Shown piece by piece: positions 6,528 through 64,000 of a stretch of DNA of 64,000 nt (position 1 is the first letter of the stretch; every line of letters begins with the position of its first letter). The DNA is from an uncultured Pseudomonadota bacterium (GTDB taxonomy: Bacteria > Pseudomonadota > Gammaproteobacteria > Steroidobacterales > Steroidobacteraceae). The notes under the pieces are model-generated. The model was not told where the DNA came from. It ran no database searches and saw only the letters and a list, made by a program, of their open reading frames with translations. A program made the position numbers and the translations under genes. The DNA is taken from the NCBI GenBank assembly GCA_903884235.1, contig CAISEB010000024.1, positions 94,308 through 158,307 on the forward strand. Reading direction: 5' to 3'.

Positions 6528-6722
6528 CCGCGAATTGTCGCCGATCCGGCCCGGTCCTGCTCGCTTGCGGCGGGATCGAGCCCGGAGTCGCGAGCCGGGC
6601 GCAAGGGTGGTTTCTCTCGGTGAAATAGGTAAAGACCAGCCTACAGGTGGCGCATTGGCCAGATTAGTTTGCGAACGCGTCTTAGATCGATTACCCGGCA
6701 CAGGGCCGGTTCTGGAGTTTCC

Positions 6723-8126
6723 ATGAATTCCCGTCATTCTCGACTCGGCTTGGCAGCGCGCATCCTGCTTCCGGTGCTGGCCGTCTGCGCCGCATCCGCC
6801 GCCCAGGCCGTCCCGAGCTTCGCGCGCCAGACGGGCATGGCCTGCGAGGCCTGCCACACCGTCTGGCCCGAGCTGACGCACTTCGGTCGCGTCTTCAAGG
6901 CTAACGGCTATACCCTTGATAACCTTAAGCAAGTTCGCGGCGTAACCGCCCAGCGCGAGGAGATCCTCTCGCTCGCGAGCCTGCCGCCGCTGTCGCTGAT
7001 GGTGCAGGCCTCCTACACCCAGATCGCGACGCCGCTGCCGGATTCGTCGGGTACCGGCAGCTCGCAGAACGGCACGGTGTCGTTCCCGCAGCAGATCAGT
7101 CTTTTCTATGCGGGTAAGATCGCCCCCCACGCGGGCGCGTTCATCCAGCTGACCTACGGCAACGACAGCGGCACGATCGGCATCGACAACACCGACATCC
7201 GCTTCGCGGGCCTGAAGACGCTGCCGGGCGACCAGAGCCTGATCTACGGCGTGTCGCTGAACAACAATCCGACGGTCCAGGATCTGTGGAACACGACCCC
7301 GGCCTTCGGCTTCCCCTACGCGGCCTCGAACATCGCCCCGGGCGCACCGGCGGCCGCGCAGATCGACGGCAGCCGCGGACAGGACGTCGCGGGCCTCACC
7401 TTCTACGCGCTGTGGAACGAAGCGCTGTACGGCGAGCTTGGCGTGTACCGCTCGGCCAAGCAGGGCACGGCCGGGCCCCTCGACAGCGCGACCGCCGGCG
7501 GCGTGGTGGCCGGCGCGGCACCCTACTTCCGGGTCGCGTACGAGCACAACTGGGGCCGGCACTCGCTCGAGGCCGGGCTCTACGGGATGACGATGAAGGT
7601 CTACCCCGACCTCGGCGCCGGCTATGGCCAGCCGCTGCATGGCCCGACGGACAACTACAAGGATCTCGCCCAGGACGTCCAGTACCAGTACATGGGTGAC
7701 AAGCACCTGTTCAGCGTCGCGGCCACCCGGATCCACGAGGCGCAGACCCTGACCGCGAGCTCGCTGGCGGCCCAGGTCGATACGGTCTCGACCGACCTGA
7801 CCACCGTGCGCGCGACGGCGACCTACTACTACAAGCGGCGCTTCGGCGGATCCATCGGCTACTTCTCGACCACCGGCGGCGTGTCGGCGTACACCGCGCC
7901 CGACACGACCACCGATCCGGTGACTCCGGGCGCCGTCAGCCTCTCACCCGCGGATACCAAGGGCTGGATGGCGGAGCTCAACTACGTGCCCTGGCTGAAC
8001 ACGAAGTTCTCGGTGCAGTACACGGCCTTCAACAAGTTTGCGGGCTTCAACTCCAACTACGACGGGTCCGGCCGGAATGCGAGCGACAACAACACGCTCT
8101 ACATCCTCGCCTGGCTGTCGTACTGA
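6723..8126 (+). CDS. Cyc2-like fused monoheme cytochrome-porin A
   Basis: Probable outer-membrane electron conduit: a small heme domain fused to a beta-barrel. 467 residues. A signal peptide ends at AQA29, and the mature protein starts [16 protein letters not shown], with the single CxxCH at residues 41-45. This matches the N-terminal pattern I know from Cyc2 iron oxidases (a proline, FARQTG, then CxxCH followed by a WPELT-type stretch). The remainder is rich in alternating aromatic strands and ends in LYILAWLSY, a typical outer-membrane barrel terminus with a C-terminal aromatic residue. Start chosen at the ATG behind GGAG. The cytochrome c4 gene begins 24 bases downstream, in the same order as cyc2-cyc1 of Acidithiobacillus. 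Assignment to Cyc2 is by motif and architecture; the electron donor is not established. Confidence 0.8.
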
Positions 8127-8150: not shown

Positions 8151-8786
8151 ATGCGAATTTCCACGCTGATGGGTACCTCGATCCTGCTCGCCTTCGGCGC
8201 GGCCGCCGCGCACGCGGACGAGACCCCGGCGGCCGACCCGGCCGTGACCGCACATGCCGAGCGCCTCGCGATCGGCACCTGCGGGACTTGCCATGGTGTG
8301 CGCGGCGTCAGCCAGCAGCCGAAGTATCCGCGCCTCGCCGCGCAGAACCCGGGCTACCTCGCCGCCCAGCTGCGTGCGTTCCGCGGGCAGCAGCGCGGCG
8401 ACCCGGACGCGATCGGCTACATGTGGGGCATGTCGGCATCGCTCGAGGATCCAACCATCGATGCGCTCGCCGCCTACTACGCCGCGCAGCCGGCCGGTAC
8501 CCCGCTGCGCAGCGGTGACGCGGCGGCGGTCGCACGCGGGCGCGACATCTACGAGAAGGGCGTGGAAGCCTCGGGGGTGCCGGCCTGCAGCGCGTGCCAC
8601 GGCCCGGATGCGCATGGCATCGCCGACTTCCCGCGGCTCGCGGGCCAGCATGCCCAGTACGTGATGAAGCAGCTCGCTTCGTTCCAGAACAACATGCGCA
8701 ACGTCGCCGTCATGCACGGCGTCGCGACGGGCCTCAAGACCGAGGAAATGGGCGCGGTCGCCGCGTTCATCGAAACCCTGCCCTGA
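8151..8786 (+). CDS. diheme cytochrome c4 (Cyc1-like)
   Basis: Periplasmic electron carrier of 211 residues. A signal peptide ends near AHA22-D. Two similar cytochrome c halves follow, with heme motifs CGTCH (44-48) and CSACH (146-150), and candidate axial methionines in MWGMSASL and MHGVATGL. Both halves carry the c4-type PRLAxQxxxY repeat (YPRLAAQNPGY and FPRLAGQHAQY). Ribosome binding site AAGGAG lies 8 bases before the ATG. It lies 24 bases after the Cyc2-like gene, so it probably accepts electrons from that porin-cytochrome and passes them toward an oxidase or another carrier. The acceptor is not in this window. Confidence 0.92.
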   Translation: MRISTLMGTSILLAFGAAAAHADETPAADPAVTAHAERLAIGTCGTCHGVRGVSQQPKYPRLAAQNPGYLAAQLRAFRGQQRGDPDAIGYMWGMSASLEDPTIDALAAYYAAQPAGTPLRSGDAAAVARGRDIYEKGVEASGVPACSACHGPDAHGIADFPRLAGQHAQYVMKQLASFQNNMRNVAVMHGVATGLKTEEMGAVAAFIETLP

Positions 8787-8834: not shown

Positions 8835-11800
8835 TCAGAACTGCACCGAGACGCCGGCGCCGCCCGAGACCGTCGAGCTCGCGGCCGCCACGGTCACCCG
8901 GAAGGTCACACCCTTCGCGAACTCCGGCATGTGCGCGATGCCGAGTGCCACGGCCTCCTGCCCACCCGAGGTGCCGACACCGACGCCGATCGTCGTCTTG
9001 CCAGGCGCTGTCGGCATCGCGATCTGGCTCGCAGCGAGGGCGCTCGCACCCATCTTGTCGATGTCCTGCCGGACCTGGTGCTGCAACGCGGCCACGGACG
9101 AGGTGATCTGGTTCTGGATCCCGGACACCGACGCGTTCAGCTGGTTGAGGTTCACCGCATCGGTCCCCGACGTGCCGGCCGCGACGTTGGTGATCTGACG
9201 GGTCTGCTGCGCACTGCCGACCGAGACGCTGTTGGCGCGGTCCGCGATCGACCCCTGGCCGAGGGCGACCGAGTTCGTGGCGCTCGCCACCGCATTGGCA
9301 CCGATCGCCGTGGCGTTCGTCGCGCTCGCAATCGCGTTGTTGCCGATGGCCGTCGTCGGGTCCGCGGTCGCCTGCGCACCGGCACCGATCGCGACGGCGC
9401 CGGCGAAGGACGCGACCGCCCCCTGCCCCTGCGCGATCGCGCCCGCACCCGTCGCCTGCGCACCGTTGCCCACCGCGATCGCGCCGCTGCCGGTCGCGAC
9501 CGACGCGGCCTGTCCCGGAATGGAGCACTGCATGCCGCCGCTGGCGCTGACGGTGCAGACGCCCGCCTGGCCGTTGACGATCGCCGCGATCTGGACCTGC
9601 ACGGCCTGCACCTGGCCGACGTTCGCGGCATCGGTTGCATTCACGCCCGCGGTGACGTTCGTGATCGTGCGGGTGAGGCCGTTGCCACCGACCGAGACGA
9701 CGTTGGCGAGACCCGCGTCGGTGCTCTGCGCGCCGAGGGCCACGGAGTTGCTGCCGGTCGCGCTGGCGCCGGCCCCGAGGGCGACGGCGTTGCCGCCGGT
9801 CGCGGTCGCGCCAACGCCGGTCGGCGCACCCGCGACCGTCGCCTGGCCGCCGATCGCGACGTTGCCACCGGTCCCCGCACCACCGCCGGCCGGCGCCGTC
9901 GTCGCACCACTACCGAGCGCGATGTCCGAGGCACCCGCCGCGGTCGCACCGCCGATCGCGGTGCTCGACGCACCGGCGGCCGCGGAACCCGCACCCAGCG
10001 CGGTCGCGCCATCGGTCGCCGTCGCGTTCGCGCCGAACGCGCTCGCGTTCATGCCGCTGGCGCTCGCGGCGTAGCCGGTGGCCGTCGAATAATCGCCGCT
10101 CGCCTGCGCGCTGGAACCGAGCGCCGCGGAGAACGCGCCAGTCGCGACGCTCTGCGCGCCGAACGAGGCGGCGCTGTCGCCCGTGGCCGTGCTGCGCGCA
10201 CCGACCGACGTCGCGTTCGGGCCGCCGGCGACACTCAGGTACCCGGCCGCGAGCGACGCATCGCCCGCGGCGACGCTGCCCGCGCCGAACGCACTGGAGA
10301 AGTTGCCGACCGCCTGCGCCGAATCCCCGGCCGCGATCGAGGACGCGCCCAGGGCGAGCGTGTTGGTGCCGAAGGCGGCGGAGTTGAGGCCCGAGGCGCG
10401 GCTCTGCGCGCCATTCGCGGTGGATGAATCGCCGCTCGCCTGCGCGCCCGTGCCGGTCGCGGTCGCCGAGGCGCCGCTCGCGATGCTGTCCGCGCCGAAC
10501 GCACTCGAGGCGACGCCCGCAGCGACGCTACGCGCACCGTATGCGGCGGCCTGGTCGGCGGTCGCCTGCGCCGAATCGCCCACGGCGACCGCCGAGGCAC
10601 CGGCCGCGACGCTCGAGTAGCCCACGGCCGTCGAGGCCGTGCCGTTGGCGATGCTCGCCGCGCCGATGGCACTTGAATTGTCGGCCTGCGCCGAACTGCC
10701 GGCGCCGGCGGCAAGCGCGTTGTTGCCGAGCGCCTGGCTTGAGTCACCCACCGCGACCGCCGAGGCGCCCGCCGCGACGCTCGAGTAGCCGACGGCCGTC
10801 GAGGCCGTGCCGCTCGCGATGCTCGCCGCGCCCATGGCGCTTGAATTGTCGGCCTGTGCCGAACTGCCGGCGCCGGCGGCAAGCGCGTTGTTGCCGAGCG
10901 CCAGGCTCGAGTCGCCCACCGCGACGGAGGAGTTGCCGAGCGCGGCGCTGTTGGTGCCGTATGCGCTGGCATTGGTGCCGGCGGCGAGACTCGCCGCGCC
11001 GCTCGCGGTCGCGCCATCGCCGGTCGCGGCGCTCTGGAAGCCGACAGCCGTGGACGAGAGTCCCGAGGCGGTGCTCAGCGCACCGAGCGCACTTGCGCCG
11101 ATGGCGGTCGCGGAGCTCTCGGCGCCGGCGGCGGTCGCGTAGTCCTCGCTCGCGAAGCTGTTTGCGCCACTGGCGGTCGAGGCATTGCCGAGGGCCGCGG
11201 CGCCGGAGCCGGCGGCCAGAGAATTGGTCCCGGCGGCGTAGGCGTTGTTGCCGATCGCGGCGGAGCCGTCGCCCGCGGCGACGCTGCCGGCGCCCGCGGC
11301 GAGCGCCGCGGTACCGGTCGCCTGGCTCGAATTGCCGAGCGCGGTCGCCTGCACGCCCGTGGCGATGCTGCCCGCGCCGAAGGCGCTCGCGTAGTCCGCG
11401 CCGGCGATGGCGTTCGCACCGCTCGCGGTGGACTGCACGCCACTCGCGATCGCGCTCTGACCGAGCGCGGTCGAGGACTGCCCGCTCGCGAGACTGTAGG
11501 TGCCGAAGGCGGAGGCGCCATCGGCTGCGGCGTTGCTCCACGCGCCGGAGGCGGTCGCGCCGACGCCGGTCGCCGCGGAGGCGTGGCCCGCGGCGGTCGA
11601 GTCGACGCTTGCCGCCACGCTCTGCGCGCCGGTCGCGGTGGCGTAGTCGGCGAGCGCCTGGCTCGAATCGCCGGTGGCGGTCGAGGACTGGCCGAGCGCG
11701 AAGCTGTTGACCCCCGAGGCCGTCGAACGGTCGCCGAGCGCGACGCTCGAGTCGCCGAGCGCCGTCGCGGAAATCCCGCTCGCGTCACTCGCGATGCCGA

Positions 11801-12668
11801 GCGCCGTCGCGCGCGGGCCGGACGCACTGCTCAGGCTGCCGACTGCGGTCGAGTCGACGCCGGTTGCGCTCGAGGACGTGCCGATGGCGGTCGAGGCGTC
11901 GCCCGCCGCGTTGCTCTGGGCACCGAAGGCCGACGAGGCGACCCCGGATGCCGTGCTGAAATTGCCCGACGCGGTCGCACCGTCGGCGCTCGCGAGCGCA
12001 TTGGACCCCTCGGCCGTCGAATTCGCGCCGAGCGCGATGGCGCCCGTGCCCGTCGCCGTCGAGGACGCGCCGTTGGCAATGCTGTTGGCGCCGGTCGCGG
12101 TCGACTGGGCGCCATTGGCCTGGCTCGAGGCGCCCGTGGCCGTCGACTGCATGCCGGATGCGACGCTCAGCGTGCCGGTGGCGGTCGACTGGTCGCCGAG
12201 CGCGGTGCTGCCGCTGCCCGTGGCCGTCGAGGCGACGCCGACCGCGACACTGTTCGTGCCGACGGCGGACGAGCCACCCGCGACGGCAACCGATCCCGGT
12301 CCGATCGCGAGATTGCCGTCCGTGCCATCGACACCGGCCGTACCGCCGTTGATCGCCGTGTTGTTCGCGCTGGTCGCGCTGCCGGCGCTCGATGCCGGTC
12401 CAACCGCGAGGTTGCCGTTGCAGTCCGCCTGCGCGAGATCCGGCGCGAGTGGCAGCGCCGGGGCCGCGCCGACGTTGCTGTAGAGCGTGCCGCCGGGACA
12501 GGTGGGGGTGTTCACCACCTGGGCACCGGCCGCAGCGCCATAGAGTGCCGCGGGCACCGCGAGGATCGCGACCACGGCGGCGCGCAGGGCGATATGTCCG
12601 GACCGCGTGGCGCGCAGGGCGGAGTCGGTGCCACGCAATGCGATCGTGCGGCGACTGGAATGGGGCAT
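8835..12668 (-). CDS. trimeric autotransporter adhesin (YadA-like)
   Basis: Surface adhesin of 1277 residues, secreted by the type Vc route. An extended signal peptide (about residues 1-50, ending near AAAGA) is followed by a very long YadA-type head built from repeats of about 7 or 14 residues, with the pattern SxAxGxxSxA. Two neck motifs are visible (TRTITNVTAGVNATDAANVG and TRQITNVAAGTSGTDAVNLN). After the second there is only a short coiled-coil stalk (about 30 residues) and the C-terminal membrane anchor of about 70 residues ending SVQF. Ribosome binding site GAGGA precedes the ATG. It lies between two cytochrome-porin operons, on the same strand as operon B. Attachment to a solid electron donor is a guess from location only. 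Confidence 0.93.
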   Translation of the reverse strand: MPHSSRRTIALRGTDSALRATRSGHIALRAAVVAILAVPAALYGAAAGAQVVNTPTCPGGTLYSNVGAAPALPLAPDLAQADCNGNLAVGPASSAGSATSANNTAINGGTAGVDGTDGNLAIGPGSVAVAGGSSAVGTNSVAVGVASTATGSGSTALGDQSTATGTLSVASGMQSTATGASSQANGAQSTATGANSIANGASSTATGTGAIALGANSTAEGSNALASADGATASGNFSTASGVASSAFGAQSNAAGDASTAIGTSSSATGVDSTAVGSLSSASGPRATALGIASDASGISATALGDSSVALGDRSTASGVNSFALGQSSTATGDSSQALADYATATGAQSVAASVDSTAAGHASAATGVGATASGAWSNAAADGASAFGTYSLASGQSSTALGQSAIASGVQSTASGANAIAGADYASAFGAGSIATGVQATALGNSSQATGTAALAAGAGSVAAGDGSAAIGNNAYAAGTNSLAAGSGAAALGNASTASGANSFASEDYATAAGAESSATAIGASALGALSTASGLSSTAVGFQSAATGDGATASGAASLAAGTNASAYGTNSAALGNSSVAVGDSSLALGNNALAAGAGSSAQADNSSAMGAASIASGTASTAVGYSSVAAGASAVAVGDSSQALGNNALAAGAGSSAQADNSSAIGAASIANGTASTAVGYSSVAAGASAVAVGDSAQATADQAAAYGARSVAAGVASSAFGADSIASGASATATGTGAQASGDSSTANGAQSRASGLNSAAFGTNTLALGASSIAAGDSAQAVGNFSSAFGAGSVAAGDASLAAGYLSVAGGPNATSVGARSTATGDSAASFGAQSVATGAFSAALGSSAQASGDYSTATGYAASASGMNASAFGANATATDGATALGAGSAAAGASSTAIGGATAAGASDIALGSGATTAPAGGGAGTGGNVAIGGQATVAGAPTGVGATATGGNAVALGAGASATGSNSVALGAQSTDAGLANVVSVGGNGLTRTITNVTAGVNATDAANVGQVQAVQVQIAAIVNGQAGVCTVSASGGMQCSIPGQAASVATGSGAIAVGNGAQATGAGAIAQGQGAVASFAGAVAIGAGAQATADPTTAIGNNAIASATNATAIGANAVASATNSVALGQGSIADRANSVSVGSAQQTRQITNVAAGTSGTDAVNLNQLNASVSGIQNQITSSVAALQHQVRQDIDKMGASALAASQIAMPTAPGKTTIGVGVGTSGGQEAVALGIAHMPEFAKGVTFRVTVAAASSTVSGGAGVSVQF
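10570..10906. repeat. 168-bp near-perfect tandem duplication in adhesin head
   Basis: Two adjacent copies of a 168-base (56-residue) unit encode ALGNNALAAGAGSSAQADNS and its continuation, through to VAAGASAVAVGDSSQ. Copies differ at only a few positions, including Met/Ile and Ser/Asn changes. Corresponding landmarks (gcgttgttgccgagcgcc) start near 10709 and 10877, exactly 168 bases apart. It is in frame, so gain or loss of a copy would change head length without breaking the gene. Confidence 0.85.
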
Positions 12669-13465: not shown

Positions 13466-14569
13466 TCACCCCGCCGGGACCGGGGTGGGCAGGCCCTGGG
13501 CCGTGGCGGGGCCACCGGCGGGTCGCACGAGCTCCGGGTAGAACTTCAGCATCGGCGCACCGCCGAGCGGCTTGTTCGAGCCGCGATGGCAGGTCGCGCA
13601 ATAGACCTTGGGGTTGTCGCCGCCCGGTCCGAGCCGGTTCGTGGGCAGCAGGCCGCCCACCGTCTGGATGTAGCCGTTGTTGAGGTCGCGCACCATGCGG
13701 ATCCCGTACCAGGCCGTCGCGCGCTGTGGCGGGCTGAGGTCCCACGAGAAGAATGACTTCGTGTTGTGGCAGAACGTGCAGTTCACGCCGAGCGACTCGG
13801 ACATCACCATCATCAGGCTGTAGGTTTCCTTGGCCTGGTTGATCGAATGGCGATTGCCCGCCTGCAACGCCTCGGTGCCGACGATGCGGATCGGCTTGTC
13901 GTGCTGCAGGTAGTCGCCAAGCGAGACGTTCGGCAGGGTCGTCGAGGCCGCGGCCGGGGTCGGCAGGTAGTCACCCTTCAGGTTCGTCGGCACGGTGCCG
14001 GAGGCCGCCGACGGCGTGACCGGCCGAGCGGGCCGCAGCGGCGGCATCAGCCCGTGCTGCTCGCGCGGCATCGCCGCGAACCACTCCTTGGCCGGGACCG
14101 GCTGGCCCCGATGGCAGGTGTAGCAGGTGACGCCGGTCGCGCCGACGTGCTGCGTCCAGTCGCTGTTGATGTGGCGCACCATGCGCAGCATCTCCCGCGC
14201 CACGCGCTTGGTGTACTTCGCGTCGCTCGCATAGTCCGGCGCGGCATGGCAGTAGTCGCAGCCGACATCGGGCGCGACCCAGGCCTTGATCGACAGCATC
14301 AGTCGCACCATCTGCCCCTGCGTCAGGTCGCCGAGCACCTGCACGTTCTGGTACACCTCGCTCGCCTTCGGGCCGTTCGGGTTCCCCGGCCGCAGGGGCT
14401 TCGGGAACGTATTGATGGCGTGCTGGGCATCGACCTGGAACGGCCGCTTCAGCTGGAACATCGCGAGTCCACGGTAGCCGCGCTGCTCCGCGTTGGTGCG
14501 CGTGTACTTGTAGGCGAAGAGCCCGACGATCACCAGCAGGAAGCCGAGTAGAACGCGACGCACGGTCAT
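13466..14569 (-). CDS. tetraheme cytochrome, PufC (reaction-centre cytochrome) type
   Basis: Periplasmic multiheme electron carrier of 367 residues. An uncleaved N-terminal membrane anchor (residues 5-20) is followed by four heme motifs: CDYCH (104-108), CYTCH (149-153), CTFCH (264-268) and CATCH (324-328). Each pair is laid out as in the photosynthetic reaction-centre cytochrome subunit, with methionine-rich helices before the first and third hemes (MVRLMLSIKAWV and YSLMMVMSESLGV) and MVRHIN/MVRDLN helices before the second and fourth. A proline/serine-rich linker (about 180-215) separates the two halves. Ribosome binding site GGAGG precedes the ATG. No reaction-centre, chlorophyll or carotenoid gene is nearby, so a non-photosynthetic role as acceptor or relay for the operon B porin and HiPIP is inferred. 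Confidence 0.88.
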   Translation of the reverse strand: MTVRRVLLGFLLVIVGLFAYKYTRTNAEQRGYRGLAMFQLKRPFQVDAQHAINTFPKPLRPGNPNGPKASEVYQNVQVLGDLTQGQMVRLMLSIKAWVAPDVGCDYCHAAPDYASDAKYTKRVAREMLRMVRHINSDWTQHVGATGVTCYTCHRGQPVPAKEWFAAMPREQHGLMPPLRPARPVTPSAASGTVPTNLKGDYLPTPAAASTTLPNVSLGDYLQHDKPIRIVGTEALQAGNRHSINQAKETYSLMMVMSESLGVNCTFCHNTKSFFSWDLSPPQRATAWYGIRMVRDLNNGYIQTVGGLLPTNRLGPGGDNPKVYCATCHRGSNKPLGGAPMLKFYPELVRPAGGPATAQGLPTPVPAG

Positions 14570-14677: not shown

Positions 14678-15037
14678 TCAGGTACCCGCCCTCTTCGCCC
14701 CGGCATCACGCTTGTCCGTCCACCCCTGGCAGTAGCAGTGGACGCAGACATCGCCCTCGAGCAGCGCGCAATCGCCCGAATCGGCCCCGAACAGGCCCGA
14801 GCTCTTCGGCGTGAAGTTGATGCAGCCCTTGCAGCTCTTGCCGCTGTCATCGGGCGTGTCCTGGAAGTAGAAGTCGTCCTTCGCGGCCTTGCCCTTCTTC
14901 TTCTTCGCACCCGCCGCAGGCGTCGCCTCGGCGAAGGCCGGCTGGACGCCGACCACCGTCACGGCGATGGCCGCGAGCAGCGTCGCGCCGCGCGTCAGGG
15001 CGGCTCGTCTGGACATGGCTTGCGTTGAATCGGTCAT
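14678..15037 (-). CDS. HiPIP-like high-potential iron-sulfur protein
   Basis: Small periplasmic 4Fe-4S electron carrier, 119 residues. A Tat-type leader (SRRAALTRGATLL) ends near AFA36. A lysine-rich linker and the YFQDTPDDSGKSC stretch follow, then cysteines at 69, 72, 90, 98, 101 and 103. HiPIPs use four cysteines (C-x2-C-x14-17-C-x12-13-C); 69, 72, 90 and 103 fit. Cys98 and Cys101 are extra, and the terminal motif reads CQGW rather than GWC, which is unusual. Ribosome binding site AGGAGG supports the start. The gene begins 37 bases after the Cyc2-like gene and is followed by the tetraheme gene, so it probably shuttles electrons between them. The Acidithiobacillus Iro protein belongs to the same fold. 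Confidence 0.8.
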   Translation of the reverse strand: MTDSTQAMSRRAALTRGATLLAAIAVTVVGVQPAFAEATPAAGAKKKKGKAAKDDFYFQDTPDDSGKSCKGCINFTPKSSGLFGADSGDCALLEGDVCVHCYCQGWTDKRDAGAKRAGT

Positions 15038-15074
15038 CGGGAGCCTCCTGTGAAGTGAGTCGTGATCCGGCGGA

Positions 15075-16505
15075 TCAGTACATCAGCCATGCGAGCAGGT
15101 ACAACGTGTTGTTGTCCTTCGCGTCGCGGCCGCTGCCGTTGTAGTTCGAACCGGCGCCGTTGAACTTCGAGTACGCGGTGTACTGCAGCACCAGCCGCCG
15201 CTTGCGGAAGGACTGCGCATCGGTCGACGAGAACAGCCAGTTGAGCTCCGCGATGTACGCCTCGGTCTCGGGGCTGCCGTTTGCATTCGCGTTGACGGCA
15301 CTGACCGCCGGATTGTCCGGATGGGCGATGTCGTAGGGCGCATACAGCAGCGAATCCACCGAACCGCTGGTCTTCTGGTACCCGACGCTGATGCCGTACC
15401 ACTTGTTGTAGTAGTAGCTCAGCTTCGCGTTGACGAAGTTCAGCGTGTTGGTGTGGTTGGCGGCCCCGCCATTGGCGTAGGCATTGTCGAGCGTCTGCTG
15501 CTCGTGGACGTTGGTGTACATCGCGCTGAAGCGGTGCTTGTCGGTGATGTACTGGTACTGGGCATCGAACGCGGTGTCCTTGTAGCGATCGGACAGCCCG
15601 GTCGGTGCGATGCCCGGCTGGTAGACCTTCGCGTCGAGCCCGAAGGATCCGATCATCGCGGATTGATGGCCCCGACCCCACTCGTGCTGGAGCGCGACCC
15701 GGTAGTAGGGCGCGACGCCGTCGATGTGGTACAGCGACTCGTTCGGCACGTTGAGGTGCAGCAGGCTGAGCACGCCGTCGGTGGTCCGATAGCCACCGGC
15801 CTCCAAGTACAGCGTGCGGCCGAGCAGCGTGTACGCCGTGAGTCCGCCTGCCGACTGCGCGAGCGCCGCGTTGATGATCGGTGAGGCCACCGGTGCGGGC
15901 GCCACCGTCGATCCGGCATACGGCCATCCCCACACCGGCGTCGTGTTCCAGACGTCCGACATGGTCGGGTTGTTGTTCAGGCTGATGCCGTACAGCGCCT
16001 CGAACTTGCCATTCGTGTACGAGTTCGCGACCCGCACCTCGAAGTTGTCCATCGCCGTGTGCCCGGCCGCGCCGTCGTACGTCAGCTGGCAGAAGCAGCC
16101 GACATGCTCGGCCAGCTTGCCGTTCAGGAAGATGCTCGCCTGCTGCAGGATGACCTCGTTGTTCAGCGGGAAGTCGTTGGCCTTGATCGTGCCGGGCGTA
16201 TTCGGATTCGCGGTATGGGTCACCGAGAACTGCAGCATCCCGGCGATCGGGATCTGCGGAGGCGGATCCCTGAAGTCGAACGAGACCAGCGGCCGCTTGA
16301 CGTCGTCGTCCACGGCCTTGGTCAACTGGTAGCCGCCGAGCTTGAAGCGCCGGCCGACGTTGGTGAGCTCCAGCCAACTCATGTGGCACGTCGTGCAGTC
16401 CATGCCGCTCTGGCGCGCGAAGGACGGCACGGCGGACGCATCGAGCGAGAGCAGCCCCAGCGTTGCAAGCGTGGCCCAGACGAGAACCGTTCGCATCGAC
16501 ATCAT
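15075..16505 (-). CDS. Cyc2-like fused monoheme cytochrome-porin B
   Basis: Second outer-membrane cytochrome-porin, 476 residues. The signal peptide ends at DASA25 and the mature protein begins VPSFARQSGMDCTTCH, with CxxCH at 37-41, followed by ELTNVGRRFKLGGYQL. The rest is a beta-barrel-like sequence ending LYLLAWLMY. It shares with porin A the heme motif, GISLNNNPTxxDVWNTTP and the terminal NGSGRDAKDNNTLY, so the two are paralogs. The ATG at 16505 has AAGGGGG upstream; the frame is open 37 residues further but with no ribosome binding site. It heads an apparent operon with the HiPIP-like and tetraheme genes. Function in Fe(II) or other extracellular electron uptake is inferred from Cyc2. 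Confidence 0.8.
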   Translation of the reverse strand: MMSMRTVLVWATLATLGLLSLDASAVPSFARQSGMDCTTCHMSWLELTNVGRRFKLGGYQLTKAVDDDVKRPLVSFDFRDPPPQIPIAGMLQFSVTHTANPNTPGTIKANDFPLNNEVILQQASIFLNGKLAEHVGCFCQLTYDGAAGHTAMDNFEVRVANSYTNGKFEALYGISLNNNPTMSDVWNTTPVWGWPYAGSTVAPAPVASPIINAALAQSAGGLTAYTLLGRTLYLEAGGYRTTDGVLSLLHLNVPNESLYHIDGVAPYYRVALQHEWGRGHQSAMIGSFGLDAKVYQPGIAPTGLSDRYKDTAFDAQYQYITDKHRFSAMYTNVHEQQTLDNAYANGGAANHTNTLNFVNAKLSYYYNKWYGISVGYQKTSGSVDSLLYAPYDIAHPDNPAVSAVNANANGSPETEAYIAELNWLFSSTDAQSFRKRRLVLQYTAYSKFNGAGSNYNGSGRDAKDNNTLYLLAWLMY

Positions 16506-16695: not shown

Positions 16696-16812
16696 TCCCG
16701 TTCGTGATCGGCTCCATGGGTGCTGCGTCGCAGCACCACGGGCGTGACGATTCAGGCGTTGTCCTTCGCCCGTGGCTACCGTTAAGGTGGGCTCGTCGCC
16801 GCGGAACATCCC

Positions 16813-16821
16813 GGGGGGGGG
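16813..16821 (+). repeat. G9 homopolymer upstream of the LysR gene
   Basis: Nine consecutive G bases lie 11 bases before the favoured ATG of the LysR gene and inside the longer alternative frame. Such tracts are prone to slippage and also to sequencing error. If the longer start were used, length change here would shift the frame. Confidence 0.7.
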
Positions 16822-16831
16822 AACACGCGAG

Positions 16832-17857
16832 ATGACGGTGATCGTCGACCTACAGGCCGATGCAGGCGCAGACCTGCAGGTGGCGAAAAGTGCGTGCAGT
16901 GATCGCCTGCGTGGCGTCAGCCTGCGTCAACTGCGTGCGTTCGCGCTCGTCGCCCGGCATCTCAGCTTCGGCCGGGCTGCTCGCGAGCTGCACCTGTCCC
17001 CATCGGCGATCTCGCTGCAGATCAAGGAACTCGAGAGCCTGCTCGGGCTCGCATTGTTCGCGCGCAGCGCACGTGGCGTGTCGTTGTCGCACGCCGGAAG
17101 CGTGCTGCTCGGCGACGTGAACCGCGCGCTGCTGGCGTTGCGCGACGCGGGCGAGGCCGTGGATCGACTGCGCGGCGAGGAATCGGGCGTCGTCGCGGTC
17201 GGCATGGTGTCGAATGCCAATTACTTCGTGCCGCGGTTGCTGGCCGACTTCCATGCCGAGCATCCGGCGGTCGACCTGCGCATGCGCGTCGGCAATCGCG
17301 AGCAGCTGCTGCGACAGCTCTACCTCGGCGAAGTCGACATCGCCGTGATGGGAACCCCGCCCAGGGAACTCGAGCTGTGCGCGGAGGCATTTGCGACGCA
17401 GCACCTTGGCATCGTCGCGGCGCCGAGCCATCCCCTCGCCCGCCAGTCCGCCATCCCCGTCGCGCGCCTCGCGCGCGAGGAGTTCATCGTCCGCGAACCA
17501 GGCTCCGGGACGCGCGCGGCCATGGAGGCCTTCCTCGCCGGCGCCGGGATCACGCCCGTGCGGCTGATCGAGATGAACGGCAACGAGACGATCAAGCAGG
17601 CCGTGATGGCCGGCATGGGCGTCGCGTTCCTGTCGCTGAACACGACCTGCCTCGAGATCCAGCAGTCACTGCTCGTCAGCCTCGATGTCGAGGGCCTGCC
17701 GCTGCGCAGGCCCTGGCACATCGTCAGCGCACGCAATGGCGCGCTGACGGACGTCGCGCGTGCGTTGCGCCAGTACGTCGTCGAGCGTGGCGCCGCGGCG
17801 ATCGGCGATCCAATCCCCGCCCGCGCCAGCGGGATCCCGGTGGCCGCGACGGGATAG
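16832..17857 (+). CDS. LysR-family regulator, CbbR-like
   Basis: Transcription factor of about 341 residues. The winged-helix domain reads VSLRQLRAFALVARHLSFGR through SPSAISLQIKELE. The effector domain has segments strongly reminiscent of CbbR, the Calvin-cycle regulator: VGNREQLLRQLYLGEVDIAV, REPGSGTRAAMEAFLAG, NETIKQAVMAGMGVAFLSL and DVEGLPLRRPWHIV. The start is uncertain: ATG at 16832 gives a short natural leader, while an ATG at 16772 would add 20 residues encoded across a G9 run. The gene is divergent from the Cyc2-like operon B, which it probably regulates. No cbb genes are in the window, so a role in carbon fixation is only suggested by the homology. Confidence 0.88.
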   Translation: MTVIVDLQADAGADLQVAKSACSDRLRGVSLRQLRAFALVARHLSFGRAARELHLSPSAISLQIKELESLLGLALFARSARGVSLSHAGSVLLGDVNRALLALRDAGEAVDRLRGEESGVVAVGMVSNANYFVPRLLADFHAEHPAVDLRMRVGNREQLLRQLYLGEVDIAVMGTPPRELELCAEAFATQHLGIVAAPSHPLARQSAIPVARLAREEFIVREPGSGTRAAMEAFLAGAGITPVRLIEMNGNETIKQAVMAGMGVAFLSLNTTCLEIQQSLLVSLDVEGLPLRRPWHIVSARNGALTDVARALRQYVVERGAAAIGDPIPARASGIPVAATG

Positions 17858-57931: not shown

Positions 57932-58483
57932 CTACAGGCAGCAGACGGCCCGAAGCGGCGGTCGCCACGCTGCAGTGTCGAACGAAATCGTGAGCGTGTC
58001 GCCGGAAAGCGAAAATCGCCTAGTGATAAGTTTGCCGATATCGCCCGGAAGGAGTGCGCTTTCGAGGTGATGGGTGACGATGTCTTCCTTCGCATCGACT
58101 TTGTACGTGCCAAAATACGCGTCATAACCGAGAACGGTTTGCGCAGTATCGGCGGTCCCTTTGATCCTCTCGGCGTCGCGACACTCTTCGGCGAGCATGC
58201 CGAGGGTCCGGCCGCGGCGGGACAATTGCGCAGCAACGTGCCCCGCTGCGTCGTAGATTAGAACGCCGTTGGGGGTCGCGGACAGGCCCGGATCGACGAC
58301 GATCTTCCCGTCTGGTGATCTCGTTACCCGGGACACAAGACGCCACCCGCCGACGAGCTGATCGACGACGCTAGGGGTTGTCCCGCGCGCCGCATTGTCC
58401 GCAGCGCTTGCTTGCCCGGCGACCATCAGGAAAGCCAACGCCGCAATCCGGACCCAATTAGCAGCTATCACACTTGTTCGCAT
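57932..58483 (-). CDS. secreted lipocalin-like protein
   Basis: 183 residues. Signal peptide ending at QASA. The mature sequence starts VVDQLVGGWRLVSRVTRSPD and continues with VDPGLSATPNGVLIYDAAGH, YDAYFGTYKVDAKEDIVTHH and RFSLSGDTLTISFDT, the lipocalin_5 pattern. Function not known. ATG at 58483 chosen because a signal peptide follows. Confidence 0.8.
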   Translation of the reverse strand: MRTSVIAANWVRIAALAFLMVAGQASAADNAARGTTPSVVDQLVGGWRLVSRVTRSPDGKIVVDPGLSATPNGVLIYDAAGHVAAQLSRRGRTLGMLAEECRDAERIKGTADTAQTVLGYDAYFGTYKVDAKEDIVTHHLESALLPGDIGKLITRRFSLSGDTLTISFDTAAWRPPLRAVCCL

Positions 58484-58904
58484 GGGCGTACCTCGTTGAC
58501 CAAGTTCTACGACAGAGAACATATCGGTAAAGGCACTCCGTCACCGCCACCCGGCATCGCGAGCTTCGCGGTCAATGCGCGCTACATTTGCAAGCATGGT
58601 CGATAGTCTGCACGAGCCGACTGCTGTACCGGTCGAGCCGATACCTTCGCCGGTCGCAAAGCTGTCGTTCGCGACCGCCCGGAACGGGTCATCATTGTCA
58701 ATTCGTGGATGGCGTCTGAATGGACGGTGTCAAATGGTGTTAGCGGGTACTGATAGGCTTTCCCACCCACACCAAGTGCTTGCTACTTTCCGGAATCTCC
58801 CGATCCCTGACCCCCAATAACCTTCTACCCCCGCGCGGCGATCCAGCGATTCGGCGCGGTGTCTGTTGAATACCACCACCCTCCAAACTCACCAAGGAAC
58901 AGCC
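58484..58904. other. intergenic region, no gene seen
   Basis: About 420 bases with lower GC than the rest of the window. No coding frame, RNA gene or repeat was recognised. It may contain promoters for the divergent lipocalin-like and DUF1993 genes. Confidence 0.4.
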
Positions 58905-59414
58905 ATGACCAGCCCCATGTATACCCACTCGGTCCCCGTCTTTAGGCAACTGCTGACGGCTTTGAAAGCCATGCTGGCACAGGCCGACGCGCATGCTGCC
59001 GCCAAATCGATAGAGCCAGACGCCTTGTTGCAGGCACGCTTGTATCCCGACATGTTTCAGTTGGTCAAACAGGTGCAGATCGCTGCCGATTTTTCCCGCG
59101 GGATTTCGGCACGCCTCGCAGGCATCGAAGTGCCCGCCTATGAAGGCAAAGAAAAGAGCTTTGCTGATCTCGATGCACTATTGGCCCGGACACTGGAATT
59201 TCTTGATAGCGTAAAGTCTGCGCAATTCGAAGGTAGCGAAACGAAGGAGATCGTGCTGCGTCCCGGCACGCCCAAAGAAAAGAAGCTGAGCGGTCAGGCG
59301 TATCTCGCCAACTACGGCTTGCCGCAGTTCTTCTTTCATGTCACCACCGCCTACAACCTTTTGCGCCACAACGGGTTGAGCATAGGCAAGCGTGATTACA
59401 TGGGCGCGTACTAG
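58905..59414 (+). CDS. DUF1993 domain protein
   Basis: 169 residues. MTSPMYTHSVPVFRQLLTAL, LYPDMFQLVKQVQIAADFSR, FADLDALLARTLEFLDSVKS and QFFFHVTTAYNLLRHNGLSI form the DUF1993 pattern, a DinB-like four-helix bundle. RBS AAGGA precedes the ATG. Function unknown. Lower GC than neighbours suggests acquisition. Confidence 0.9.
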   Translation: MTSPMYTHSVPVFRQLLTALKAMLAQADAHAAAKSIEPDALLQARLYPDMFQLVKQVQIAADFSRGISARLAGIEVPAYEGKEKSFADLDALLARTLEFLDSVKSAQFEGSETKEIVLRPGTPKEKKLSGQAYLANYGLPQFFFHVTTAYNLLRHNGLSIGKRDYMGAY

Positions 59415-59565
59415 CCGTGCCGTTCGCGCATCCGGAAACCTGACGCCGAAGAGGCGGATGGCACCTTCGGCCCGGTCGCGCAGACGCCGACGGAGAACAG
59501 CTGCACGACCAACCGCGACGAACCACTATCGCGCTAATCTGCAGCAAGCGATCGATCGCAACGAG

Positions 59566-59970
59566 ATGAACACCATGGTTCCAACCGACTCCCAAGCGCG
59601 GCGTTGGCCCTACGCTGCGCTCTACGGTCTCGGCTTTGCGGTCAATTTTCTGGATACGCTCGGAGTAGGTTCGTTTGCGACGAACGCCGCGACGCTGAAG
59701 CTCGAGCGGCTCGTCGACGACGACCGGATCCCCGGCACGCTCAACGTCGCCAACGCACTGCCGACGATGCTCGAGGCCCTACTCTTGATTGCGCTTGTCC
59801 CGGTCGACCGGACCACGCTCGGATCCATGGTCGTCGCCTCCTGCCTCGGCGCCTGGTTCGGCACTGGCATCGTCGTACGCCTGCCGCGGCTCCAGATGCA
59901 GCGCGCCATGGCGCTGGCGCTGCTCACCACCGCCGGATTGATCGCCTGGCGTCAACTCGCTGGTGCTCAT
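59566..59970 (+). pseudogene. TauE/SafE-family permease, N-terminal half only
   Basis: Contains the first half of a TauE/SafE protein: ALYGLGFAVNFLDTLGVGSF, ATNAATLKLERLVDDDRIPG, TLNVANALPTMLEALLLIAL, LGSMVVASCLGAWFGTGIVV and MALALLTTAGLIAWRQL. After about residue 135 the similarity ends and the sequence becomes the antisense of a TnpB remnant. The C-terminal half of a similar gene lies upstream at 56328-56759. The intact permease is therefore absent from the window. Confidence 0.75.
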
Positions 59971-60186
59971 GCCGCCGCCGCGGCACGCGCTTTCCCTGCC
60001 CTTGCGCGGACGGGGTGTCCGGCTCGGCGGCGCGTGACGTGGCGAAGGCTCGTTCCCGCACATGGACGGGGAACACCTCCCCGCGGCCAGGATGTTCTTC
60101 GCGGCGTTGACGTCGCGGTCGTGAGCGCATCCGCACTCACGAGTATGGCGCCCCGAACGGGCGGTGGCATATTCCGGCGTCAGCAT
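59965..60186 (-). mobile_element. tnpB: IS200/IS605-type TnpB, C-terminal remnant
   Basis: The minus-strand frame begins near the TnpB C-terminus: RHTRECGCAHDRDVNAAKNI, then L-A-A-G and GNEPSPRHAPPSRTPRP, the zinc-binding and RuvC-III-like end of IS605 OrfB/TnpB. The N-terminal 80 percent is absent. It abuts the broken TauE N-half. No TnpA and no clear terminal hairpins were found. Confidence 0.7.
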
Positions 60187-60463
60187 TCCGCTGATCTAGG
60201 CTGATACGGTCGGGTCGACGCCGATCAGACCGCCGCCCTGCCGACGGCAGCTGATTCCGACTCCGCCATGCGCCTGCGGCGCGGCGCAGCAATTGCCACC
60301 CACTTGGCGGCCGGGAACAGCCCAAACGGTTGATCGGTGCGATTAACTCGTCATCTACTGCTCGGTGACTGAACTGCTTGCGTGACGGGGCTACTTGACC
60401 CGATCGGGCCTGGCGCGGGTGTCAGCGACGAGGTGGCTTGTTACTTGCAATACGACCTTGTGT
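60187..60463. other. intergenic region, no gene seen
   Basis: Lies between the TnpB remnant and vapBC. No coding frame or clear IS end is seen. Confidence 0.35.
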
Positions 60464-60510
60464 ATTCCATATCTCATTGACATGGAATCTCATAATTTGT
60501 AATGTGGAAT
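60464..60510 (+). promoter_or_regulatory. vapBC promoter with inverted-repeat operator
   Basis: ATTCCAT (60464-60470) and ATGGAAT (60482-60488) form an inverted repeat, and a further GTGGAAT occurs at 60504-60510. TTGACA (60477-60482) and TGTAAT (60498-60503) are 15 bases apart and fit -35 and -10 boxes. The antitoxin ATG lies at 60512, so the transcript may be nearly leaderless. Autoregulation by VapB is the inferred purpose. Confidence 0.5.
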
Positions 60511-60511
60511 C

Positions 60512-60715
60512 ATGAAAACCACTGTCAATATTCCCGATGACGACCTCGCGGACGCGATACGGTTCACCAATGCGAAGACGAAGCGCGAAGCGATCGTCAC
60601 GGCGATACAGGAATTCAATCGCCGTAAGCGGATGGGCGAACTCACCAAGCACGCGGGAAGCTGCAAGGATCTGCTGAGCGTCGAGGATCTCTTGCGGCAG
60701 CGTCGCAAGGGCTAA
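60512..60715 (+). CDS. vapB: VapB-type antitoxin
   Basis: 67 residues: MKTTVNIPDDDLADAIRFTN, AKTKREAIVTAIQEFNRRKR, typical of ribbon-helix-helix antitoxins, which bind DNA with the N-terminal strand and mask the toxin with the acidic C-terminal tail (here DLLSVEDLLRQRRKG). The stop TAA is followed at once by the VapC start. The pair is a likely autoregulated operon. Confidence 0.8.
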   Translation: MKTTVNIPDDDLADAIRFTNAKTKREAIVTAIQEFNRRKRMGELTKHAGSCKDLLSVEDLLRQRRKG

Positions 60716-61090
60716 GTGGCCGTGATCCTAGTCGACTCTTCCTCCTGGATTAACATGCTTCGGCCGAATGGGGATGCGGCAGTCAGGGACCGCGTAACCC
60801 GCGCGCTTGATGCCGGCGAGGCCTGCTGGTGCGCGATCGTCCGGCTGGAACTGTGGAATGGCGCGGGCGGCGATCGAGAAAAAAAAGTACTGAGGGATTT
60901 CGAGCGACTGCTGCCCGAACTCGCCATCGACAATGACGTTTGGACCACCGCGTTCGAACTTGCACGACGCGCACGTTCTTCCGGCATCTCGGTCCCGGCT
61001 ACCGACATCTTGATCGCCGCCTGCGCACGACGCCACCAAGTGGAGCTTGAGCATGCAGACGCGGATTTTTCGCATCTAGAAAAGCTTTAG
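60716..61090 (+). CDS. vapC: VapC-type PIN-domain toxin
   Basis: Endoribonuclease toxin of 124 residues. PIN acidic residues: Asp7 in ILVDSSSWI, Glu45 in VRLELWNG, Asp97 in PATDILIAACA and Asp115 or Asp117 in HADADF. Start GTG at 60716, directly after the antitoxin stop. Targets unknown. Confidence 0.85.
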   Translation: MAVILVDSSSWINMLRPNGDAAVRDRVTRALDAGEACWCAIVRLELWNGAGGDREKKVLRDFERLLPELAIDNDVWTTAFELARRARSSGISVPATDILIAACARRHQVELEHADADFSHLEKL

Positions 61091-61567
61091 TCCCGGCCGC
61101 TCTTTCGGTTCGCCGTCACTGTCCAATTCTCCAGTTCCCGAACCCGGGACGGGGCTTGCGAGAAATGGTGCGTCTCAGCCGGGAGTTGCCTTTAATTGCG
61201 CCGATGGCCACTGTTCTGCGGGTCAAAATCTTCCTGCCGCTCAGCTGGAGGGCCGCCCAGCCGTGGCTAAAGTGGCGGGCCACCAAAGGCACCGACCACT
61301 CACCGGCCGCCCCAGCGTCGACCGCCGGGAAGTCGCACTGCACTTGATCGCGATTGACGAATTTCGTATCTAGGTAGCATGGTGCTCCAGCTGCCCGCTG
61401 TGTTCATGGAACGAGCAACTCGTGATCCGTGGCCAATCTGGCTTCCCGGGGACGTGCTCGGTTCGACCATCTCCCATATGCGAGGCAGACTGGAACCCGC
61501 CGACAGCATGAAGGCGGCGAGTCCCGCAAAAGCAGGAAACAGTTCTATCCCGGAGATCACGCGGCCT
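61091..61567. other. intergenic region, no gene seen
   Basis: Frames here (for example 61116-61343) have no recognisable features. The first 63 codons of the longer frame beginning at 61379 are probably not translated, because the next gene's natural start is 61568. Confidence 0.4.
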
Positions 61568-62287
61568 ATGCATGATGTTCACGCACCCCATGAATCGATC
61601 CACACGTGGAAGGCTTTCTTCATCCATATCGCGACGATTGTCGTCGGCCTGCTAATCGCTATTGGTCTTGAACAGACGGTGGAGGCGATTCACCACAGCA
61701 ATGAGCGGCGCCAACTAATCCGCGAGATGCGCGAAGAGGCCGAGCGCAATGTCGAAACATTACGCTTCGACGTACAGTCCGCCCGCGCTGCGAAACGGTG
61801 GACTGGCGCCGCTATTCTCGTCCTGCAGCAAGCGCCTGTTGTCTCTGGTTCCATCACTGTCTCGCTGCCTGCAGGCATCTCGTTAATTGAAGGACATCAG
61901 CCTTCGCGCGCCGTGTGGGACATCGCAAAGAGCAACGGCAAGGCCGGCCTCATTCCCGACAATCTCGCCGAGATTTATGATCGGCAGGCAATTGAAGCCA
62001 CACGGATGGAATTAGCAGTTCAGAATATACTGACCAACAGATCCACAATCGAAGCGCTTGAGTCCAGGCTGCACGGACGCGTTCAGGGGGGCGCTACTTT
62101 GAAGCTTTCTCCGCAGGAACGCGACGAGCTGGTACTCGCGCTATCAAACAACATCGCCGCCTCGTCCGGGGTGATCTATGCCGCCACCGTCTGGCAAGCT
62201 GCTGCGGAAGCTGTTGCGCACAATGCGCATTCGCGCGCCGAAATGGACGCGAACATTGACCGGCTCCTCGCTGTTCAGCCCGAGTAG
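61568..62287 (+). CDS. single-pass membrane protein of unknown function (239 aa)
   Basis: The N-terminal stretch HTWKAFFIHIATIVVGLLIA, followed by IGLEQTVEAIHH, forms one membrane helix with the (F/H)IATIxxGLLIAIGLE motif found in a widespread group of small hypothetical proteins. A long helical periplasmic or cytoplasmic part follows (MREEAERNVETLRFDVQSAR, with several coiled-coil-like stretches). The ATG at 61568 sits naturally before the membrane segment. Function unknown. Confidence 0.7.
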   Translation: MHDVHAPHESIHTWKAFFIHIATIVVGLLIAIGLEQTVEAIHHSNERRQLIREMREEAERNVETLRFDVQSARAAKRWTGAAILVLQQAPVVSGSITVSLPAGISLIEGHQPSRAVWDIAKSNGKAGLIPDNLAEIYDRQAIEATRMELAVQNILTNRSTIEALESRLHGRVQGGATLKLSPQERDELVLALSNNIAASSGVIYAATVWQAAAEAVAHNAHSRAEMDANIDRLLAVQPE

Positions 62288-62565
62288 CCTGAGTTGCATA
62301 GACAGTCTGACAAAAGCACCTCAGCGGGCGAGCCGTGAATCGGCTGCGCGCCTAGGAATCGAACGTGCCTGCCGCAAAGCAGACGCTCACGGCCGACAGC
62401 TGTAGGTCTGAAGCGGGTAAAAAGTCACAGGTGCTCATTCAGCACAGCGGACCAGCTAACGGAAGGAGGCTACGGCATGGCTTCGCGGCTTTCGACAATC
62501 GGTAATGGGCCGAATCTACCGCTCGCCTTTGATTTCAAAGCACAAGCCACCGCGAGGAAAATCCG

Positions 62566-63927: not shown

Positions 63928-64000
63928 TGGAACAAATTCATCTGGTTGGGCGCGTCGGCATCGTTTTGGACGGCCCGGATTTGAGCAAACAGCGTATCCA

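What the first reader, a model, noticed from the sequence alone, without database searches (positions are those of the whole stretch)
14678..16505. Cyc2-like porin B with HiPIP and PufC-type tetraheme cytochrome: a new electron-conduit combination
A fused monoheme cytochrome-porin, a HiPIP-like protein and a four-heme reaction-centre-type cytochrome are adjacent on one strand with operon-like spacing, with the tetraheme gene continuing to 13466. Each part is familiar, but I know of no described operon that joins all three. Known precedents: Cyc2 with HiPIP in Fe(II) oxidation, and HiPIP donating to PufC in purple phototrophs. Here no photosynthetic gene is near. Inference: electrons enter at the outer membrane through porin B, pass to the HiPIP and then to the tetraheme cytochrome. 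It may be an Fe(II) uptake chain with a repurposed photosynthetic electron carrier.
Basis: partly seen in the sequence, partly recalled or inferred. Interest (0 to 1): 0.93.

Follow-up and report, generated by a model that had tools for sequence, protein, structure and literature searches.

The report
Iron-fed second photosynthetic cytochrome operon
A bacterium whose genome encodes a photosynthetic reaction centre carries a second, distinct version of the reaction-centre cytochrome beside genes for a predicted outer-membrane cytochrome-porin and a predicted iron-sulfur shuttle; together they would likely carry electrons from outside the cell, probably from dissolved iron, into photosynthesis.

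Summary
The trio is real: on the minus strand lie a Cyc2-like cytochrome-porin (16505-15075), a six-cysteine HiPIP (15037-14678) and a PufC-family tetraheme cytochrome (14569-13466), beside a divergent LysR gene. The genome has pufL-pufM-pufC on another contig and a RuBisCO-family gene on the window's own contig, so the tetraheme protein is a second PufC in a phototroph, not a stranded relic. The ordered trio recurs in four other genomes; all five trio genomes have reaction-centre genes, against 1 of 11 others with related porins. In one Ferrovaceae genome the trio lies just downstream of pufLMC. In a 195-row tree the trio cytochromes and 120 metagenome proteins form one clade apart from all 68 puf-operon PufCs. 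They keep every heme ligand, while up to 3 of 5 known HiPIP-docking positions are switched (significant at six of eight cut-offs). The HiPIP's extra cysteines sit where Ferrovum HiPIP-41 has them. Best reading: a Pio-like electron-uptake operon, likely Fe(II)-fed, ending in its own reaction-centre cytochrome. Fe(II) as donor and docking to the reaction centre are untested.

The parts
15075..16505 (-). Cyc2-like fused monoheme cytochrome-porin ('porin B')
   Evidence: CxxCH; 16 predicted strands, mean pLDDT 74, heme domain poorly modelled; porin fold matches, best E 1.9e-8
14678..15037 (-). HiPIP-like protein with twin-arginine leader and six cysteines (extra CxxC before the last ligand)
   Evidence: 1isu, E 9e-4; pattern in 120 of 120 listed homologues of 224 found
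13466..14569 (-). second PufC-type tetraheme cytochrome, membrane-anchored, no lipobox cysteine
   Evidence: separate clade from puf-operon PufC; heme ligands invariant
16772..17857 (+). divergent LysR-type regulator, best model CbbR (below its cut-off); likely regulator
   Evidence: a 55% identical LysR gene is divergent from the trio in L009 and L010
16506..16771 (.). intergenic stretch between LysR and the trio; inferred divergent promoter region
   Evidence: Position only; the promoter scan found no site here

Best explanation
The three genes likely form an electron-uptake operon of a phototroph: a predicted outer-membrane cytochrome-porin would take electrons from outside, most likely from dissolved Fe(II), a HiPIP would carry them across the periplasm, and a second PufC-type tetraheme cytochrome would pass them to the pufLM reaction centre. 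Shown: gene order and families; a separate pufL-pufM-pufC set and a RuBisCO-family gene in the genome; recurrence of the ordered trio; separation of the trio cytochrome from puf-operon PufC as one clade with all heme ligands kept. Inferred: co-transcription, location of the proteins, Fe(II) as donor, HiPIP docking at heme 1, and docking of the second cytochrome on the same reaction centre in place of PufC. It works like the pio pathway of Rhodopseudomonas palustris, with a one-protein Cyc2-like porin in place of PioAB and with its own reaction-centre cytochrome.
For: Genome has PufL, PufM and PufC on C20 and a RuBisCO-family hit on C24. Ordered trio in L009, L010, L014, L038. Reaction-centre genes in 5 of 5 trio genomes against 1 of 11 other genomes with related porins (Fisher P 0.0014, or 0.0037 counting the two Ferrovaceae once). 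L038 has pufL-pufM-pufC, a P450 gene, then the trio on one strand. Clade of 5 trio + 120 metagenome cytochromes, SH-aLRT 100. Heme ligands invariant in 125 of 125 and 68 of 68; 76 of 85 PufC-conserved columns kept; the QxGYRG-like segment after the anchor kept in 123 of 125 and 67 of 68. Switched columns include 3 of 5 residues of the T. tepidum HiPIP docking site, P 0.0014. HiPIP extra cysteines at 1isu positions 50 and 53 as in HiPIP-41. Shared contig lengths of 3 kb or more link tet with HiPIP 14 times (0.22 expected), porin with tet 7 (0.37) and porin with HiPIP 7 (0.21).
Against: Each trio genome also has its own PufC (a fragment in G001), so the cell does not need a second one. The docking-site result depends on the cut-off: P 0.13 and 0.17 in two of eight settings. 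E247, H255 and N269 near heme 3, the reaction-centre side, are altered in many trio cytochromes. The tetraheme protein also passes the cut-off of NF033196, named c_type_nonphoto (108 bits against 70). The trio is not beside puf in the window. If this HiPIP had the potential of HiPIP-41, 571 mV at pH 3.1, it would lie above the reaction centre's (about 430-500 mV). RuBisCO was not found in G003 or G004, and the RuBisCO family also rings in the B. subtilis control. Fe(II) use is not shown; most related porins lie in genomes without reaction-centre genes.
Confidence: 0.6

Rival explanations
1. The trio is a dark, respiratory Fe(II) oxidation chain: the tetraheme cytochrome has left the reaction centre and relays electrons from the HiPIP towards a terminal oxidase or the bc1 complex.
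For: HiPIP-41 of Ferrovum is proposed to serve Fe(II) oxidation with oxygen and has a very high potential; residues near heme 3 are altered; a separate PufC already serves the reaction centre.
Against: Trio-type cytochromes were found only in genomes that also have reaction-centre genes, 5 of 5; all heme ligands and 76 of 85 PufC-conserved columns are kept; the trio lies beside pufLMC in L038.
Confidence: 0.2
2. The trio takes up electrons for the reaction centre from a donor other than Fe(II), such as an electrode-like mineral, Mn(II) or a reduced organic shuttle.
For: Related porins are widespread in bacteria not known here as iron oxidisers, for example Massilia and Telluria, some beside a canonical HiPIP; the porin lacks the Cyc2 PXL motif.
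Against: Tested Cyc2 proteins oxidise dissolved Fe(II) (PMC8406198 passages); the HiPIP type is that of the iron oxidiser Ferrovum; the Ferrovaceae trio genomes belong to a family of iron oxidisers.
Confidence: 0.15
3. The trio detoxifies or senses metal in the periplasm and is not an energy pathway.
For: A second HiPIP of R. palustris, Rpal_4085, is overexpressed with divalent metals and cannot reduce the reaction centre (PMC10304953 passages).
Against: A cytochrome-porin plus a four-heme PufC paralogue is an elaborate and specific route; the link to reaction-centre genes would be unexplained.
Confidence: 0.05

Closest known systems
pioABC of Rhodopseudomonas palustris TIE-1 (photoferrotrophy)
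   Same: Outer-membrane porin-cytochrome entry, then a HiPIP, then the reaction centre (PMC10304953 passages)
   Different: PioA is a decaheme protein with a separate porin PioB, and TIE-1 has no tetraheme subunit; here one monoheme cytochrome-porin and a dedicated PufC-type cytochrome
Cyc2 (Acidithiobacillus, Mariprofundus, Chlorobium)
   Same: N-terminal AXPXFARQ signature with CxxCH fused to a predicted 16-strand porin (for the family, here)
   Different: LEL in place of PXL; S in place of T/Y in the window's own copy; CFC pair in the barrel
PufC, tetraheme subunit of the reaction centre
   Same: PF02276/NF040706 far over cut-off; all heme ligands
   Different: Not in a puf operon; separate clade; HiPIP docking positions switched
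HiPIP-41 of Ferrovum sp. PN-J47-F6
   Same: Extra cysteines at 1isu positions 50 and 53
   Different: Found beside a PufC-type cytochrome in phototrophs, and in 120 of 120 listed homologues, not only in Ferrovum; potential unknown; the HiPIP-41 sequence itself was not compared
Phototrophic Ferrovaceae ('Ca. Solisferrum', PMC13390463)
   Same: Genus placeholder CAIVHB01 matches the accession stem of L038's record; PufLMC and Cyc2 reported
   Different: Section 17 infers thiosulfate rather than Fe(II) because PioAB is absent; the word HiPIP does not occur in the main text and PufC once

Membership tests
Cyc2 (fused cytochrome-porin) | AXPXFAR[Q/K][T/Y] motif upstream of CXXCH | tested here: inconclusive
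   AVPSFARQS in the window: last position S; T in most of the listed relatives; motif from PMC8406198 passages
Cyc2 (fused cytochrome-porin) | PXL motif downstream of CXXCH | tested here: not met
   LEL in the window and the other four trio porins
Cyc2 (fused cytochrome-porin) | 16-stranded barrel after the cytochrome domain | tested here: met
   16 strands, mean pLDDT 74; porin folds in PDB, E 1.9e-8, TM to query 0.36-0.43
Cyc2 (fused cytochrome-porin) | Oxidises Fe(II); falls in a Cyc2 cluster | not tested
   No assay and no reference Cyc2 sequence in the tree
HiPIP | Four cluster cysteines with HiPIP spacing, twin-arginine leader | tested here: met
   Alignment to 1isu; 117 of 120 listed homologues have RR in the first 25 residues
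HiPIP | Recognised by a HiPIP family model or a confident fold | tested here: inconclusive
   No Pfam hit even at E 10; weak PDB match; AF2 model pLDDT 54
PufC (PF02276 / NF040706) | Curated model cut-off | tested here: met
   392 and 401 bits against 22.4 and 150; NF033196 c_type_nonphoto is also passed, 108 against 70
PufC (PF02276 / NF040706) | Four CxxCH, three axial Met and one axial His | tested here: met
   125 of 125 in the trio clade, 68 of 68 in puf-operon PufC (axial labels recalled)
PufC (PF02276 / NF040706) | Gene follows pufM in a puf operon | tested here: not met
   Follows a HiPIP gene; the puf-operon PufC is on C20
PufC (PF02276 / NF040706) | Bound to the reaction centre | not testable with these tools
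   No complex prediction or assay
Pio-type photoferrotrophy operon | Decaheme PioA plus porin PioB | tested here: not met
   No decaheme gene in the trio; pioAB elsewhere in the genome was not searched. Works like Pio, is not a member
Pio-type photoferrotrophy operon | HiPIP delivering to a reaction centre | not testable with these tools
   HiPIP and reaction-centre genes both present; transfer not testable

The most novel reading that the evidence does not exclude
A third proteobacterial route to photoferrotrophy: a Cyc2-like porin and a Ferrovum-type HiPIP feed a dedicated second reaction-centre cytochrome that replaces PufC on the same pufLM reaction centre, so that the cell rewires its photosystem to extracellular iron by swapping one subunit. 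More than a hundred metagenome protein clusters would then mark unrecognised iron-fed phototrophs, including phototrophic Ferrovaceae now thought to live on thiosulfate.
Probability: 0.45. Interest if true: 0.88.

Novelty: new variant of a known kind. Interest (0 to 1): 0.75.

Why it matters
[quoted passage not shown] in Proteobacteria the routes named in the passages I saw are pio and fox (PMC10654088). A Cyc2-like route that brings its own reaction-centre cytochrome would add another, give a three-gene marker for metagenomes, and offer an iron-based alternative for phototrophic Ferrovaceae, for which a 2026 paper inferred thiosulfate because PioAB is missing (PMC13390463, section 17). The switched HiPIP docking face makes concrete mutational predictions.

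Tried and rejected
Pfam at E 10 found no domain in the porin and only an unrelated 12-bit hit (below its cut-off) in the HiPIP; the PDB sequence search found no porin relative. AF2 of the HiPIP gave pLDDT 54 and was not used. Plasmids: no HiPIP match; for tet 7 records, all under 60% identity, five of the six with a named gene or more being pufC. Promoter scan: 1 site, on the other strand and away from the trio start (0.6 expected); terminator scan: 3 sites (2.4 expected), one of them just after the tet stop; neither is above shuffles.

Rejected: 'recent pufC duplication' (own PufC is 46% identical; separate clade); 'chance neighbours' (recurrence); 'genome without phototrophy'.

Searches were given 16 of those 80 loci (L009-L022, L025, L038; 15 genomes). 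In the large surveys at most 5 candidates a genome were scored, and E limits of 1e-60 or 1e-20 could hide a split gene such as G002's. For the tree, duplicate loci of the same genes (L001, L002, L089-L101, L107, L109, L110) and fragments (L003, L104, L108) were left out, and matches beyond the loci caps never entered; 68 puf-operon rows remained. In G001 only PufL was found (its contig ends 197 bases later) and PufC is the fragment L108 at a contig end. L012 ends about 240 bases after its HiPIP, so tet next door cannot be judged there, but its genome G005 has only a puf-operon PufC. L014 begins just upstream of its porin, so LysR cannot be judged there. Contig-length sharing uses only the 120 listed of 755, 7672 and 224 hits, and the same length is not proof of the same contig.

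Full report
WHAT IS THERE. The window holds three genes in a row on the minus strand: a cytochrome-porin at 16505-15075, a HiPIP-like protein at 15037-14678 and a tetraheme cytochrome ('tet' below) at 14569-13466, with gaps of 37 and 108 bases and GGAGG-like sequence before the second and third. A LysR gene (16772-17857) points away; its best model is CbbR, 282 bits against a cut-off of 450.

THE PARTS. The porin has one CxxCH at its N-terminus and 16 strands in an AlphaFold model (mean pLDDT 74; the heme domain is poorly modelled); Foldseek finds ordinary porins (best E 1.9e-8, TM to query 0.36-0.43 in the rows shown). It bears most of the Cyc2 signature but has LEL where Cyc2 has PXL (motifs from PMC8406198 passages), and a CFC cysteine pair in predicted strand 3. 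In the porin alignment the CFC pair goes with LxL in 52 rows, with PxL in 5 and with a gap in 2; LxL without CFC also occurs (29 rows). Of the 80 porin loci, CFC is in the four trio loci plus L011 and L020. The HiPIP matches solved HiPIPs weakly (1isu, E 9e-4). It has six cysteines; its C98, C101 and C103 align with 1isu positions 50, 53 and 55 (positions counted from the printed alignment). Passages of PMC10879576 report extra Cys-50 and Cys-53 in HiPIP-41 of the iron oxidiser Ferrovum sp. PN-J47-F6 and call Cys-53 restricted to Ferrovum; here all 120 listed of 224 homologues have the CxxCxC pattern. The tetraheme protein is a full PufC-family member that also passes the cut-off of a model named c_type_nonphoto. 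It begins with a hydrophobic stretch without a lipobox cysteine; in Rhodopila globiformis an uncleaved helix anchors PufC in the reaction centre (PMC9640540 passages). Its relatives in L009, L010, L014 and L038 have a lipobox-like cysteine.

THE GENOME IS A PHOTOTROPH'S. Contig C20 has PufL, PufM and another PufC in a row, 46% identical to the window's protein over 322 residues. A RuBisCO-large-family gene lies on the window's own contig, C24:21387-22304, while the window begins at 94308 (the family also rings in non-autotroph controls, and its form was not tested). So the trio cytochrome is a second PufC.

RECURRENCE. Four hold the ordered trio: L009 (Burkholderiales bog_994), L010 (uncultured proteobacterium), L014 and L038 (uncultured Ferrovum). 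L009 and L010 keep the divergent LysR, 55% identical. Four others have the porin with a HiPIP of canonical cysteine pattern and no tet in the fetched stretch: L012, L013, L022, L025 (L012 ends soon after its HiPIP). In L038 the order is pufL (cut by the contig end), pufM, pufC, a P450 gene, porin, HiPIP, tet, all on one strand. I searched 15 genomes behind 16 of the 80 loci for Photo_RC and for tet: the four trio genomes all hit Photo_RC (G001 by PufL alone, at a contig end) and also hold a second PufC-family gene (in G001 only a fragment); of the other 11, one hits Photo_RC (G005, which has a puf-operon PufC but no trio-type tet). With the window's genome that is 5 of 5 against 1 of 11, Fisher P 0.0014; counting the two Ferrovaceae once, P 0.0037. 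Surveys of 396 genomes of the order, 369 of the class, 398 of the phylum, 32 Ferrovaceae, 148 relatives of G001 and 150 of G002 (overlapping sets) gave no further trio-type tet under their limits: the best other hit was 349 bits, in a puf operon, against 378-416 for the tets of G001, G003 and G004; G002's came in two pieces. The trio is thus rare among the species genomes sampled, but 120 listed protein clusters, mostly from metagenomes, share its cytochrome clade. Shared contig lengths of 3 kb or more link tet with HiPIP 14 times (0.22 expected), porin with tet 7 (0.37) and porin with HiPIP 7 (0.21).

A SEPARATE CYTOCHROME CLADE. In a tree of 195 rows (IQ-TREE quick search, SH-aLRT only) the five trio cytochromes and the 120 listed proteins are one clade with support 100 and a stem of 0.77; all 68 puf-operon PufC and two PufC-like genes without pufM in the fetched flank lie outside. 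The program warned that long branches meet, so finer placement is unsure. All heme cysteines and histidines, three axial Met, one axial His and the Arg after heme 3 are invariant in 125 of 125 and 68 of 68 (ligand labels recalled, placed by spacing). Of 85 columns at least 90% conserved in PufC, 76 are kept at 80% or more.

THE DOCKING FACE. The co-crystal of T. tepidum HiPIP with its reaction centre (PMC7889895 passages) lists Y76, T91, V95, T98 and W116 of the cytochrome between the cluster and heme 1. The alignment to that chain is ungapped here with an offset of 3, giving window positions 73, 88, 92, 95 and 113. Columns fixed in the trio clade (at least 80%) but rare in PufC (under 20%) number 17 of 305 and include three of these five: 88 (A in 105 of 125; V in the window's own protein), 95 (K in 125 of 125, 0 of 68 in PufC) and 113 (Y in 125 of 125, 9 of 68); P 0.0014. 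With seven other cut-offs P is 0.003-0.019 in five and 0.13 and 0.17 in two; counted within positions 70-115 alone, P is 0.006-0.21. I take this as moderate evidence that the cytochrome is retuned to a different HiPIP. Against an unchanged fit to the reaction centre, positions 247, 255 and 269, near heme 3, are altered in most or about half of the clade.

MECHANISM. Known steps elsewhere: PioAB hands electrons to the HiPIP PioC, which reduces the reaction centre (PMC10304953 passages); HiPIP reduces PufC at heme 1 (PMC7889895 and PMC10991045 passages). The trio supplies one piece for each step. I infer: cytochrome-porin, then six-cysteine HiPIP, then second PufC, then special pair. Fe(II) is the likeliest donor because of the porin type and the HiPIP type, but it is not shown. 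A potential like HiPIP-41's, 571 mV at pH 3.1 (section 12 of PMC10879576), would make transfer to the reaction centre uphill and would favour a respiratory role; this is the main risk.

LITERATURE. Nine searches of the PMC library listed no paper that I could see to describe a Cyc2-like / HiPIP / PufC operon; most listed papers were seen as listings only, and subscription papers and preprints were not covered. PMC13390463 (passages; section 17 in full) describes phototrophic Ferrovaceae and infers thiosulfate as donor because PioAB is absent; the word HiPIP does not occur in its main text, though one passage says that an iron-sulfur protein was not identified beside its Mto-like genes. PMC10715153 (passages) discusses Cyc2, HiPIP and PufC in Acetobacteraceae; the passages name no such operon. 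PMC10654088 and PMC8302410 were seen in passages only.

VERDICT. Observation confirmed; interpretation partly supported. New variant of a known kind: phototrophic electron uptake with a Cyc2-like entry and its own reaction-centre cytochrome.

Noticed in passing
window 6669-8126 + and 8151-8786 +: A second Cyc2-like cytochrome-porin (42% identical to porin B, with the usual PXL motif) followed by a diheme c4-like cytochrome; a third Cyc2-like gene lies on C2:16499-17791.
   Followed up: partly
window 8835-12668 -: A 1277-aa YadA-head repeat protein, a likely trimeric autotransporter adhesin, between the two cytochrome-porin clusters.
   Followed up: no
L169 (G1271) and L174 (G1318): PufC-like genes with neither pufM nor the trio HiPIP in the roughly 1.5 kb fetched on each side; G1318 also has a puf-operon PufC, so a different kind of second PufC exists.
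   Followed up: partly
L011:8286-9647: In the genome of L009, a second porin with the CFC pair and LEL motif but no trio HiPIP or tet in the fetched stretch.
   Followed up: no
trio porins; residues 174 and 176 of the 513-aa window ORF: A conserved CFC cysteine pair near the start of predicted strand 3, invariant in the 22 aligned trio-like porins; role unknown.
   Followed up: partly
window 58001-64000: G+C falls from about 70% to 58-60% at the right end, with few clear genes; possibly acquired DNA.
   Followed up: no
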